Shown here one piece after another: positions 54,143 to 58,781 of a stretch of 64,000 bases of DNA. The stretch spans positions 968,501 to 1,032,500 of the forward strand of contig NZ_CP150919.1 of assembly GCF_039909015.1 (NCBI RefSeq), read 5' to 3'. Both the position numbers and the translations under genes were made by a program. The DNA comes from Pseudomonas grandcourensis (GTDB lineage: Bacteria > Pseudomonadota > Gammaproteobacteria > Pseudomonadales > Pseudomonadaceae). Each line of letters begins with the position of its first letter. Positions within the stretch are counted from its first letter, which is position 1. Below the pieces are notes generated by a model. The model worked only from the letters and a program-made list of their open reading frames with translations. It ran no database searches and was not told the DNA's origin.

Positions 54143-54514
54143 CTAGCGGCTCGCTGCAAGCGTAATCGACACCGACTCGGCGAATCGCAGCGCGTGGGGC
54201 TTGTCGACCTCGACCTCGGCGTACAGCACCGATGCGTTGGCCATCACCAGATCGAGAATTTCCTGGGTCAGGCGTTCGAGCAGGGCAAAGCGGTTGCCTT
54301 CCACATGGGCGATGATTGCTTTGGTAATGGTCCGGTAGTTCAACGCGTGATCGATGTCGTTGTCCCGTACCGCTTCCTGGGCTGCGTACAGAATGGTGAG
54401 GTTGATCAGCACATCCTGCTTGTTGAGGATTTCATCCTCGTTGATGCCGATGAAGGTACGCAGGCACAGGTCTTTGACCCGGATGCGTGCCATGCCTGGC
54501 TGAAGTTGTGGCAT
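54143..54514 (-). CDS. folX: Dihydroneopterin triphosphate 2'-epimerase FolX
   Basis: A 123-residue protein of the FolB/FolX tunnel fold, starting MPQLQPGMARIRVKDLCLRT. The conserved FIGINEDEILNKQDVLINL and YRTITKAIIAHVE stretches match FolX rather than FolB. It epimerises 7,8-dihydroneopterin triphosphate to the monapterin form. With FolE and FolM it makes tetrahydromonapterin, known as the cofactor of phenylalanine hydroxylase in Pseudomonas. It starts two bases after folE ends. Confidence 0.92.
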   Translation of the reverse strand: MPQLQPGMARIRVKDLCLRTFIGINEDEILNKQDVLINLTILYAAQEAVRDNDIDHALNYRTITKAIIAHVEGNRFALLERLTQEILDLVMANASVLYAEVEVDKPHALRFAESVSITLAASR

Positions 54515-54516
54515 TG

Positions 54517-55077
54517 CTACTTGCTCCGTCCAATCAATTGCAGGAACTCCTGGCGGGTATTGCTCGACTCGCGGAAGGCGCCGAGCATTACCGAGGTGTT
54601 CATGGTCGAATTCTGTTTCTCGACGCCGCGCATCATCATGCACATGTGCTGCGCTTCGATGACCACCGCGACGCCGGCCGCGCCGGTCACTTGCTGCACC
54701 GCGTCGGCGATTTGCCGGGTGAGGTTTTCCTGGATTTGCAGGCGCCGGGCGAACATGTCCACCAGCCGTGCAATCTTCGACAGGCCAAGCACCTTGCCGG
54801 TTGGAATATAAGCCACATGCGCCTTGCCGATGAAGGGCAGCAAGTGGTGTTCGCACAGCGAGTACAGCTCGATGTTGTCGACGATCACCATTTCATCATT
54901 GTCGGAGGCGAACAGCGCGCCATTGACGATCTCTTCGACACTTTGCTCATAACCATGGCAAAGGTACTGCATGGCCTTGGCTGCGCGCTTCGGCGTGTCG
55001 AGCAAACCCTCGCGATCGGGGTTTTCACCGAGGCCGATGAGGATCTCTCGATAATTCTGGGGCAGGGATAACGTCAT
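54517..55077 (-). CDS. folE: GTP cyclohydrolase I FolE
   Basis: A 186-residue GTP cyclohydrolase IA. Zinc ligands Cys75 and His78 lie in LYSLCEHHLLPF with the third Cys in EAQHMCMMMRG. It converts GTP to dihydroneopterin triphosphate. The start MTLSLPQNYREILIGLGENP at 55077 is conserved. Its place between folM and folX points to pterin cofactor rather than folate supply. folE of P. putida is reported to be light-inducible through PplR regulators; a LitR/LOV pair lies nearby here. Confidence 0.96.
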   Translation of the reverse strand: MTLSLPQNYREILIGLGENPDREGLLDTPKRAAKAMQYLCHGYEQSVEEIVNGALFASDNDEMVIVDNIELYSLCEHHLLPFIGKAHVAYIPTGKVLGLSKIARLVDMFARRLQIQENLTRQIADAVQQVTGAAGVAVVIEAQHMCMMMRGVEKQNSTMNTSVMLGAFRESSNTRQEFLQLIGRSK

Positions 55078-55096
55078 GGAAAATCCTCGCGGGACA

Positions 55097-55807
55097 CTAT
55101 TTGATGTGCCTTCCGCCATTGACGGTCAGGGTGGTGCCGGTGACATAAGGGTTGTCGAGCAGATAACGCAGGCTCTGGTAGATAACTTCGCAGCCGGGTT
55201 CGATGCCCAGCGCGGACTTGGCCAGCGCCTTGGCACGGTAGGCCACATCGTCTTCAGGGTTGAACAGTAGCAGGGCCGGCGCGATCCCGTTGACCTTGAT
55301 GGCCGGCGCGTACCTGGCGGCGAAGGACAGGGTCAGGCTGTCGAGCCCGGCTTTACTGGCGCAATAGCCGATGTGTTTGCTGCTGCCCCTGCGGGTCACG
55401 TCATCGCTGATGTGCACGATGTCGGCAGGGCTCGAGCGTTGCAGCAGGTCGGCGCAATGCAGGTTGATCAGGTAGGGCGCCAGCATGTGCACGCTGAACA
55501 TGCGGGTGAATGCCGCAGCGTCGGTGTCCGGCGTTTCAGCCAGCCATTCGGAGGCGTTGTGGACAATCGCCCGCAAACAGTCGGTGTGGGTTTTCAGTTC
55601 GCTGATGAAGGCGAGGATCCCGGTTTCGCTGGCGAAGTCCGCGAACACCGCGGTGGCCCCCAGGTCGCGCAGGGCTTGTACGCCGGGGCGTTCGCTGCGG
55701 TAGCTGAAAATCACCCGATGGCCATCTTCCAGCAATCGCCGGGCGCAATGCAGGCCGACACGCTGGCCGGCGCCGGTAATGAGGACAGGGGCTGCGGAAT
55801 AAGTCAT
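55097..55807 (-). CDS. folM: Dihydromonapterin reductase FolM
   Basis: A 236-residue SDR with the nucleotide motif ITGAGQRVGLHCARRLL and catalytic YCASK. The TGAGQRVG form (rather than TGxxxGIG) is typical of FolM and pteridine reductases. It reduces dihydromonapterin to the tetrahydro form using NADPH. It is the first gene of folM-folE-folX (gaps 19 and 2 bases). A TATAGT -10-like sequence lies about 30 bases before its ATG on the minus strand. Confidence 0.9.
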   Translation of the reverse strand: MTYSAAPVLITGAGQRVGLHCARRLLEDGHRVIFSYRSERPGVQALRDLGATAVFADFASETGILAFISELKTHTDCLRAIVHNASEWLAETPDTDAAAFTRMFSVHMLAPYLINLHCADLLQRSSPADIVHISDDVTRRGSSKHIGYCASKAGLDSLTLSFAARYAPAIKVNGIAPALLLFNPEDDVAYRAKALAKSALGIEPGCEVIYQSLRYLLDNPYVTGTTLTVNGGRHIK

Positions 55808-55888
55808 GAACGGCTCGCGTCGCGGTGAGAACAAAACTATACCAGCGACGGGAGCGCTCTACCTATTGCGGGGGAAACAACTGTGGGA

Positions 55889-57641: not shown

Positions 57642-57644
57642 AGT

Positions 57645-58250
57645 TCAGAGATGCAGCGCAGGATGAGTCAAACGATGCTGTTGCAGGATGAACTGGCGCA
57701 GACGCTCGGTTTCGTCCGTATCGCTCTGGCTCAGTTGATAGGCGTAGAAGCCCTTTTCGTTTTCTTTCTCGAAGGTGCCGCGCAAGGCAATCCGCTCGTA
57801 GCCTGAGGGGCTGAACCACAAGGCAAAATGCTTCGGCGGTTTGGTCTTGTTGCGAGCTTCCAGCAAAACCCCTTTGCACGACACTTCGTGTACCCACAGG
57901 GTGCCGGGTTGACCCTTGGCGTTTTCCAGCGCTACCGGTTCGTCCAGCACCAGGCGCCAAGGCCGCACCATCGGCCCGTCTTCATAGATGCTCGGCACGC
58001 CGAGACGCAAATGCAGCGCATGGAACTCGTCTTCCACCAGGTGCAGGGGGAAGGTCATTTGCTGGTTTTCGAAGCTGGCTTGAATGGTGACCTGCTCATG
58101 GGCCGCCAGGCGGGTGAGCAGGTCACGGATTTGCGAACCACCGTTGACGAGCAGGCTCGACGTCGCGTCCCGCACATTGAGTTGCGGGTTGTGCTGCATG
58201 GTCTGGATGAAATCCAGCTCATCCTGGGTCAGGAGCGCGTCGCGTTGCAT
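57645..58250 (-). CDS. PilZ-domain-like protein (degenerate c-di-GMP motif)
   Basis: A 201-residue protein resembling YcgR-type two-domain proteins: an N-terminal beta domain (about 30-90) and a PilZ-like domain (about 95-200). The expected RxxxR appears as RPWR (96-99) and the DxSxxG as EVSCKG (122-127), so c-di-GMP binding is uncertain. It ends three bases from the MerR stop (convergent) and begins 54 bases after the LOV gene ends on the same strand, so it may be co-transcribed with lov. Function unknown. Confidence 0.7.
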   Translation of the reverse strand: MQRDALLTQDELDFIQTMQHNPQLNVRDATSSLLVNGGSQIRDLLTRLAAHEQVTIQASFENQQMTFPLHLVEDEFHALHLRLGVPSIYEDGPMVRPWRLVLDEPVALENAKGQPGTLWVHEVSCKGVLLEARNKTKPPKHFALWFSPSGYERIALRGTFEKENEKGFYAYQLSQSDTDETERLRQFILQQHRLTHPALHL

Positions 58251-58267
58251 GGCCTGCTCGAAAGGTA

Positions 58268-58298
58268 TAGTTACAAAGTTATTGGTGATTGTAGTTAC
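58268..58298. promoter_or_regulatory. Candidate regulator site between the LOV and PilZ-like genes
   Basis: TAGTTAC occurs twice in direct orientation 24 bases apart (58268 and 58292), and a TTACA/TGTAG dyad with a 14-base centre overlaps them. The minus strand carries a TATACC -10-like box beside it. It resembles, but does not match, the published PplR1 direct repeat (spacer 12). Confidence 0.35.
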
Positions 58299-58304
58299 TG
58301 ACCA

Positions 58305-58781
58305 TTAATTCTGAGTTTCGTTTACGCCGTTCGTCGCCTTGAGTGCGGCAAGCTCGGCCTGGAGTTCAGCCAACTGCCCCTCCAGCTGTGCCACGCGCTG
58401 TTGCGCCTTGACCTGCACGGTGACGTCTTTCTGCACACCGACAAAATAGGTTTGGCCGTCCGCCGGATTTTTCACCGTTGAAAGAGACAGCTCGTTCCAG
58501 AACGGTGTGCCGTCCTTGCGGTAGTTGCGCAGTATTTCCCGGCAGGATCCTTCACTGTTCAATGCATCGCGAATCAGCGGCAGGGCTTCCTGATCGCGGT
58601 CCCCCGACTGCAGGAAACGACAATCCTGATAGAGGATTTCTTCGCTGGAGTACCCCGTCAGGCGTTCGAACGCGGGGTTGACGTAAATGAGGATTTTGTC
58701 CTGATCGCCTTCCTTTTCGGCAATCACGATACCGTCGTTGGAGGCGTTGATCACCATTTGCAGCAGTTGTGCATTAATCAT
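58305..58781 (-). CDS. Short LOV blue-light photoreceptor (PpSB1/SBW25-LOV type)
   Basis: A 158-residue single LOV domain with no fused effector. The photoactive Cys54 lies in YQDCRFLQSG; the flavin-contact residues Asn86 (NYRKDG), Asn96 (FWNELS) and Gln117 (VGVQKDV) are present. Blue light makes a Cys-FMN adduct. Of the four arginines that hold the FMN phosphate in PpSB1-LOV, three are present (55, 62, 71) and one is Leu67. A C-terminal coiled coil (about 122-150) should mediate dimerisation. It lies with a LitR-like MerR gene, as in known PplR/LOV pairs, and is divergent from the flavodoxin gene. Confidence 0.93.
   Translation of the reverse strand: MINAQLLQMVINASNDGIVIAEKEGDQDKILIYVNPAFERLTGYSSEEILYQDCRFLQSGDRDQEALPLIRDALNSEGSCREILRNYRKDGTPFWNELSLSTVKNPADGQTYFVGVQKDVTVQVKAQQRVAQLEGQLAELQAELAALKATNGVNETQN

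What the first reader, a model, noticed from the sequence alone, without database searches (positions are those of the whole stretch)
54143..58781. Possible blue-light module: LitR-like MerR, short LOV and PilZ-like genes beside the folM-folE-folX operon
A class II LitR-like regulator and a short LOV protein lie two genes apart, with a PilZ-like gene between them and the tetrahydromonapterin operon about 1 kb away. In P. putida, PplR regulators and PpSB-LOV receptors are known to control light-inducible genes including folE. The layout suggests blue light could control pterin cofactor supply, and perhaps a c-di-GMP-linked output through the PilZ-like protein. The PilZ link and the physical joining to folM and folX are the parts I do not recognise from published work.
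Basis: partly seen in the sequence, partly recalled or inferred. Interest (0 to 1): 0.75.

Follow-up and report, generated by a model that had tools for sequence, protein, structure and literature searches.

The report
Known blue-light switch beside pterin genes
This stretch of a soil Pseudomonas genome carries a blue-light sensor and its repressor partner that are already described in related species, but the repressor's docking site in front of the neighbouring pterin genes looks worn away here, so the switch probably works mainly on DNA-repair genes elsewhere in the genome.

Summary
[quoted passage not shown] The arrangement is not new. PMC9758184 (P. mendocina, 2022) describes pmlR2, a hypothetical gene, pmSB-LOV and folM-folE-folX, shows lit LOV inactivating the repressor, repressor binding to the folM promoter, and about 2.5-fold folM induction.

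New here:
(1) LOV and this LitR are inherited together (both in 216, neither in 29, one alone in 4 of 249 genomes). The PilZ gene does not follow them: it stays where both are gone, and is missing in a group that keeps both.
(2) The PilZ protein has a YcgR-like fold, but 0 of 89 family members have [D/N]xSxxG and only 2 have RxxxR.
(3) The folM operator's upstream half TGTACA is exact in 13 of 55 sampled orthologs, in three parts of the tree, but decayed in the window (TAGAGC) and exact in 0 of 75 close relatives, while two perfect sites remain at the photolyase cluster elsewhere in the genome.

Light control of pterins is published for a relative and doubtful here; the c-di-GMP output is unsupported. 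Interest is low to moderate.

The parts
54143..54514 (-). folX, dihydroneopterin triphosphate 2'-epimerase
   Evidence: NCBIfam NF008418 6.7e-58, above cut-off; start ATG read from the sequence
54517..55119 (-). folE, GTP cyclohydrolase I (start may be 55077)
   Evidence: Pfam 1.1e-75 and NCBIfam 7.5e-83
55097..55807 (-). folM, dihydromonapterin reductase
   Evidence: NCBIfam NF005066 1.3e-105
55838..55861 (-). decayed LitR operator of folM: TAGAGC-N12-GGTATA; GGTATA overlaps a possible extended -10 (TGGTATAGT, read by eye)
   Evidence: same place as TGTACA-N12-GGTATA in operator-bearing relatives
55889..56458 (-). ABM-domain protein with a hydrophobic C-terminal part, function unknown
   Evidence: Pfam ABM 1.1e-4, just below cut-off; hydrophobic part read by eye from the translation
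56682..57641 (+). class II LitR-type MerR regulator (PmlR2/PplR3-like)
   Evidence: Pfam MerR_1 8.5e-16, no B12-binding domain at E 0.1; best PDB relatives 3whp and CarH 5c8d, E 2e-14; co-inherited with LOV
57645..58250 (-). YcgR-like two-domain PilZ-fold protein with non-canonical c-di-GMP motifs
   Evidence: model and fold match; motif columns
58305..58781 (-). short LOV photoreceptor, adduct Cys54, C-terminal extension; its end lies 54 bp before the PilZ-fold gene on the same strand
   Evidence: PDB relatives 7yx0, 7r5n, 7a6p, 3sw1 at E 5e-74 to 1e-51; Cys in 52 of 52
58881..59339 (+). flavodoxin, constant neighbour and boundary of the module
   Evidence: NCBIfam NF004343 6.9e-91; found in 60 of 60 regions

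Best explanation
The window holds the P. fluorescens-complex version (named relatives: P. jessenii, P. migulae) of the known Pseudomonas LOV-LitR blue-light switch. In the dark LitR sits on operators and blocks RNA polymerase. In blue light LOV forms its cysteine-flavin adduct, binds the LitR N-terminal domain and takes it off the DNA. In this genome the switch most likely acts in trans, on the RudS-LitR1-photolyase cluster at 5.77 Mb (the window lies near 1.0 Mb), which has two perfect operators. An operator in front of folM is probably ancestral in the genus and has decayed in this clade, so pterin synthesis is predicted to be weakly or not light-controlled here. The PilZ-fold gene lies between the two by genome history, is probably co-transcribed with LOV, and is not shown to belong to the switch. 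Shown here: genes, synteny, co-inheritance, motif states, predicted fold. Shown by others in P. mendocina: the biochemistry. Inferred: that it carries over, that the P. mendocina hypothetical gene is the PilZ-fold gene, and which promoters are bound in this species.
For: PMC9758184 (parts 1-3 of 8 of the text, the Discussion and searched passages): antirepressor mechanism, consensus T(G/A)TACA-N12-TGTA(C/T)A, folM site TGTACA-N12-GGTATA 95 bp upstream, folM 2.4 to 2.5-fold, pmSB-LOV not induced. Over 249 genomes: both genes 216, neither 29, LOV only 2, LitR only 2. In a recheck of the 31 LOV-less genomes the best match of each lies in an open frame of 452 aa or more. The LitR HTH (residues 21-60) is 90-100% identical to the window in the 16 relatives compared, so DNA specificity should be unchanged. 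Operator at folM: 21 of 60 upstream regions have a site with 2 or fewer mismatches against 0 of 60 letter shuffles; the other five promoters have 0 to 3 each, shuffles 0 to 3. The exact upstream half-site stands in 13 of 55 folM orthologs; the 12 of them in the 59-row tree fall in three places. It stands in 0 of 75 close relatives. Own genome: perfect sites at C1:5770702 and C1:5770752 before RudS-LitR1-photolyase. In 30 genomes 111 perfect sites against 4 for the reversed control.
Against: Nothing was measured in this species. LitR may bind degenerate sites: 9 of 75 close relatives have one mismatch in the folM half-site and 15 have two, and the consensus rests on few footprints. The residual similarity at the expected position is only slightly better than two bases away (2.9 against 3.1 mean mismatches), so ancestry in this clade is not shown by that measure. 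The well-supported branches of the tree force only 2 of the 3 operator changes. Two genomes have LOV without this LitR (G091, G142) and two LitR without LOV (G186, G223). Counts over related genomes are not independent.
Confidence: 0.68

Rival explanations
1. One reading: the module controls folM-folE-folX by blue light in this species too, through LitR bound to the folM promoter, as in P. mendocina.
For: Neighbouring genes and strong precedent: PmlR2 binds the folM promoter and folM rises about 2.5-fold (PMC9758184). The downstream half GGTATA is kept in the window.
Against: The upstream half in the window is TAGAGC against TGTACA (4 of 6 differ); no site with 3 or fewer mismatches lies in 55808-55888; 0 of 75 close relatives have the exact half-site.
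Confidence: 0.22
2. The PilZ-fold protein is a c-di-GMP receptor that gives the light switch a second output, or receives the LOV signal directly.
For: It lies 54 bp downstream of LOV on the same strand, next to LOV in 47 of 60 regions, and has a YcgR-like two-domain fold. Two of 89 family members do have RxxxR.
Against: Present in 29 of 31 genomes without LOV and 212 of 218 with it. Six of 60 regions keep PilZ with both light genes gone, five keep both light genes with PilZ gone. No [D/N]xSxxG in 89 of 89 and no RxxxR in 87 of 89, the window included.
Confidence: 0.07
3. The genes are chance neighbours and LOV has another partner in this species.
For: The folM operator is decayed and LitR is the fastest-changing of 12 genes compared.
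Against: Near-perfect co-inheritance of LOV and this LitR and direct binding shown for the P. mendocina pair (PMC9758184).
Confidence: 0.05

Closest known systems
PmlR2 / PmSB-LOV locus of Pseudomonas mendocina NBRC 14162 (PMC9758184)
   Same: Class II LitR clustered with a hypothetical gene and a short LOV, folM-folE-folX in the same region; conserved LOV cysteine
   Different: The folM site TGTACA-N12-GGTATA is reported there and decayed in the window; the main text has no mention of PilZ or c-di-GMP
PplR1-3 and PpSB1/PpSB2-LOV of P. putida KT2440 (as described in PMC9758184; the 2020 paper itself is not held)
   Same: LitR paralogs and short LOVs controlling a shared light regulon that includes photolyase and folE
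   Different: KT2440 has three LitRs and two short LOVs; the window's genome has two LitRs and one short LOV at E<=1e-20
Class I LitR/CarH (B12-dependent)
   Same: N-terminal MerR HTH and repressor logic
   Different: No B12-binding domain detected in the window protein; light is presumably sensed by LOV instead
YcgR / FlgZ / MapZ PilZ proteins
   Same: PilZ barrel, and a YcgR-type two-domain match by Foldseek
   Different: RxWR without the first R of RxxxR in 87 of 89, and E, Q or S in place of D/N of [D/N]xSxxG in 89 of 89
PruA-PruR-DcpA pterin signalling to c-di-GMP in Agrobacterium (PMC13259868, passages read)
   Same: A FolM-like reductase product feeds c-di-GMP control there
   Different: No PruR or DcpA relative was looked for here; the link is only a lead

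Membership tests
Class II LitR | N-terminal MerR-type HTH of the LitR/CarH kind | tested here: met
   MerR_1 8.5e-16; best PDB relatives 3whp and CarH 5c8d, E 2e-14, residues 21-94
Class II LitR | No cobalamin-binding domain (PF02310) | tested here: met
   No hit at E 0.1
Class II LitR | Four-helix B12-binding_2 domain retained (PF02607) | tested here: inconclusive
   No hit at E 0.1 in the window protein, though the genome's other LitR has it at 1e-7; no structure was predicted
Class II LitR | Light-dependent loss of DNA binding through a short LOV partner | not testable with these tools
   Needs purified proteins; shown for P. mendocina in PMC9758184
Short LOV photoreceptor | Single LOV core with helical ends and no effector domain | tested here: met
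   158 aa; aligns over 1-155 with 7yx0
Short LOV photoreceptor | Adduct-forming cysteine | tested here: met
   Cys54 in the window and in 52 of 52 aligned
Short LOV photoreceptor | Reversible photocycle | not testable with these tools
   Needs spectroscopy
PilZ domain | PilZ beta-barrel | tested here: met
Canonical c-di-GMP-binding PilZ | RxxxR | tested here: not met
   R96-x-W-R99 in 89 of 89, V95 in the window; only 2 of 89 rows (P0175, P0176) have R at position 95 and so RxxxR
Canonical c-di-GMP-binding PilZ | [D/N]xSxxG | tested here: not met
   First position E 75, Q 13, S 1 of 89; S and G invariant
LOV-LitR-controlled folMEX locus as in P. mendocina | Gene order | tested here: met
   compared with the paper's text, not with the P. 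mendocina sequence
LOV-LitR-controlled folMEX locus as in P. mendocina | LitR operator TGTACA-N12-GGTATA before folM | tested here: not met
   TAGAGC-N12-GGTATA in the window
LOV-LitR-controlled folMEX locus as in P. mendocina | Light induction of folM | not testable with these tools
   Needs RNA measurement

The most novel reading that the evidence does not exclude
The YcgR-like protein translated from the same mRNA as LOV is a light-gated partner that works without canonical c-di-GMP binding, so that LOV has two outputs: LitR on DNA and a PilZ protein on motility or envelope machinery, the second lost or decoupled in some clades.
Probability: 0.06. Interest if true: 0.65.

Novelty: new member of a known kind. 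Interest (0 to 1): 0.3.

Why it matters
It corrects two tempting inferences. Lying beside a light switch does not make the pterin operon light-controlled in this clade, and the PilZ gene between the two light genes has its own evolutionary fate. If the operator decay is confirmed, Pseudomonas offers a natural series for asking how a regulatory link is lost by promoter erosion while the regulator and its receptor stay in place next door, and why some species still tie monapterin supply to light.

Tried and rejected
Rejected: that the PilZ gene is part of the light module (profile and synteny). Not found: LitR sites above background at the other promoters (at 2 or fewer mismatches, one letter shuffle per region in brackets: ABM 0 of 47 [0], LitR 3 of 54 [3], PilZ 2 of 55 [0], LOV 0 of 52 [1], flavodoxin 0 of 60 [2]). 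The 27 weak consensus hits in the window (17 expected; 1 of 100 shuffles reached 27) include none in the three promoters.

Dropped rows: for the folM counts 5 of 60 regions (L047, L066, L070, L071, L098) and 5 of 80 named loci (L117, L128, L136, L140, L182) had no clear folM ortholog with a start codon; 8 of the remaining 55 had no matching -10, three of them (L042-L044) with TGTACA pairs elsewhere upstream. L050 is missing from the tree (59 of 60 rows). The 60 regions were chosen by me; 17 of the 20 were picked for unusual layouts, so they are not a random sample. Six LOV-bearing genomes lack the PilZ gene; five were looked at (L050-L054), G144 was not.

Led nowhere: a LOV-like domain in long GGDEF-EAL proteins, because that domain lacks the adduct cysteine in the four read. 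The sigma-70 scan found no promoter in 55700-59000. PDB search with the PilZ sequence alone gave nothing; with the family profile only MapZ/PA4608 at E 0.22 to 0.27. A first count that no family member has RxxxR was wrong: two have it. Paper searches (PubMed Central open-licence library) listed no paper whose title or abstract treats PilZ or c-di-GMP in this module; only 14 and 42 carried those terms, subscription papers are mostly absent, and the 2020 P. putida paper is not held.

Full report
What is there. The window lies at bases 968501-1032500 of a 6.76 Mb single-contig Pseudomonas genome. Named relatives of the PilZ-fold gene at 98-100% identity include P. fluorescens C8 and P. jessenii DSM 17150. 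From left to right the region reads folX, folE, folM and an ABM-domain gene on the minus strand, a LitR-type MerR gene on the plus strand, then a PilZ-fold gene and a short LOV gene on the minus strand, and a flavodoxin on the plus strand. LOV and the PilZ-fold gene are 54 bp apart, so one mRNA is likely (inference).

What is already published. PMC9758184 (I read parts 1-3 of 8 of the text, the Discussion and searched passages; figures and supplements were not seen) describes the same kind of region in P. mendocina: pmlR2, a hypothetical gene, pmSB-LOV, and folM-folE-folX, and states that the cluster of pmlR2, a hypothetical gene and pmSB-LOV is conserved in Pseudomonas. It reports that illuminated LOV binds the LitR N-terminal domain and abolishes DNA binding, that the repressor binds the folM promoter, and that folM rises 2.4 to 2.5-fold and folE 1.6 to 3.3-fold in light, while pmSB-LOV (0.9 to 1.1) is not induced and pmlR2 is 1.4 to 1.5. 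Its main text does not contain the words PilZ or c-di-GMP. That its hypothetical gene is the PilZ-fold gene is my inference from position.

Conservation. In 249 Pseudomonas species genomes a short LOV (E below 1e-45) is present in 218 and absent in 31; in the 31 the best hits (1e-30 or weaker) lie in open frames of 452 residues or more. A LitR of this type (E below 1e-50) is present in 218. Both are present in 216, neither in 29, LOV alone in 2 (G091, G142), LitR alone in 2 (G186 and G223, the latter 73% complete). The PilZ-fold gene is present in 241 of 249: 212 of 218 with LOV and 29 of 31 without. Of 60 regions that I chose, 47 have LitR, PilZ and LOV; 6 (L042-L047) keep PilZ with LitR missing on one side and LOV on the other; 5 (L050-L054) keep LitR and LOV with PilZ gone; 2 (L048, L049) lack LOV only. 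The four of L050-L054 that are in the tree form one clade, so PilZ loss there may be one event. folX, folE and folM are all present in 55 of 60. Among 80 named close relatives the complete order is found in 67. LOV and LitR therefore behave as one unit and PilZ as a core gene that happens to stand between them.

The folM operator. I scanned 300 bases upstream of six genes in the 60 regions for the published consensus. Upstream of folM 21 of 60 have a site with at most 2 mismatches against 0 of 60 letter shuffles; the other promoters have 0 to 3, shuffles 0 to 3. The usual form is TGTACA-N12-GGTATA, as reported for P. mendocina, with GGTATA overlapping a possible extended -10. Of 55 regions with a clear folM ortholog, 13 have the exact upstream half at the right distance (12 with GGTATA, L060 with GCTATA), 6 have one mismatch, 28 have two to six, and 8 lack a matching -10. 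The 12 of these that are in a 59-row tree fall in three places (3 changes against 11.1 in shuffles; well-supported branches force 2). In the window the half-site reads TAGAGC. Of 75 named close relatives 0 are exact, 9 have one mismatch, 15 two, and 51 three or more. The residual signal at the expected offset is weak: mean 2.9 mismatches there, 3.1 at an offset two bases away, about 3.9 to 5.7 elsewhere, in 48 of 80 loci with GGTATA. The LitR HTH differs little (90 to 100% identical over residues 21-60 in the 16 relatives compared), so a changed recognition sequence is not the likely cause. My reading is an ancestral operator lost several times, here included. Separate gains are not excluded.

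Where the switch acts. The own genome has three perfect consensus sites. Two, 50 bp apart, stand before RudS-like (desulfurase plus DUF1722), LitR1, photolyase and SDR genes, much like the two sites of P. mendocina promoter P6650. The third (C1:5307384) is identical in four close relatives. It lies near the 5' end of a TTG-started open frame whose response-regulator domain begins at residue 50; the next in-frame start is at residue 43, so the site may stand about 80 bp before the real gene and could be a further operator. In 30 genomes the consensus gives 111 sites against 4 for the reversed control. Among the 19 genomes whose sites are fully listed there, 15 show a pair 49-51 bp apart; I checked the genes behind it only in the own genome.

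Judgement. The light module is known. Its pull on pterin synthesis is published for a relative and, by operator state, doubtful here. The PilZ output lacks support. What may be worth a short study is the apparent repeated erosion of one operator while the regulator pair persists next door.

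Noticed in passing
L202:5054-5077 (G182) and L200:1713-1736 (G184): In two closely related genomes without short LOV, a perfect LitR site lies upstream of a PAS-GGDEF-EAL gene. Of 11 genomes with a close relative of the protein (E<=1e-170) only these two have the site upstream within 1.5 kb; a third (G221) has one downstream. The PAS domain lacks the LOV cysteine. A possible LitR-c-di-GMP link, but elsewhere.
   Followed up: partly
G000:C1:5307384-5307407 (L198:1885-1908): A third perfect LitR site of the own genome, identical in four close relatives, possibly about 80 bp before the real start of a response-regulator gene.
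   Followed up: partly
L043 and L044, upstream of folM: Two genomes lacking both the short LOV and this LitR still carry a perfect TGTACA-N12-TGTACA site 124 bp before folM, so the other LitR may hold the operon there.
   Followed up: partly
56682-57641: LitR is the fastest-changing of 12 neighbouring genes (median 75% identity in 16 relatives against 84-99%), with the change in the C-terminal part and not the HTH.
   Followed up: partly
58305-58781, residue 67: The position of R66 in slow-recovering short LOVs (aligned with W619_1-LOV, 5luv) is Leu in 50 of 52 aligned, the window included; mutating R61 and R66 sped recovery 280-fold in PpSB1-LOV (PMC5314338, passage read). Faster dark recovery is predicted.
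   Followed up: partly
L197:6587-6610: A one-mismatch site of the folM type (TGTACA-N12-GGTATA) points toward an epimerase and ferrochelatase gene pair beside the photolyase cluster of the own genome.
   Followed up: no
L073; L047, L070, L071, L098: No folE hit in the operon of L073; no folX or folE hit, with only a 38-42% folM hit, in the other four.
   Followed up: no
L055-L058, between LitR and the PilZ gene: About 2.2 kb of other sequence separates LitR from PilZ-LOV in four genomes; not identified.
   Followed up: no
53419-54046: Two small conserved genes (Pfam HopJ and DUF1244) stand beside the fol genes, with hits in 59 and 60 of 60 regions; any link to pterins is unknown.
   Followed up: no
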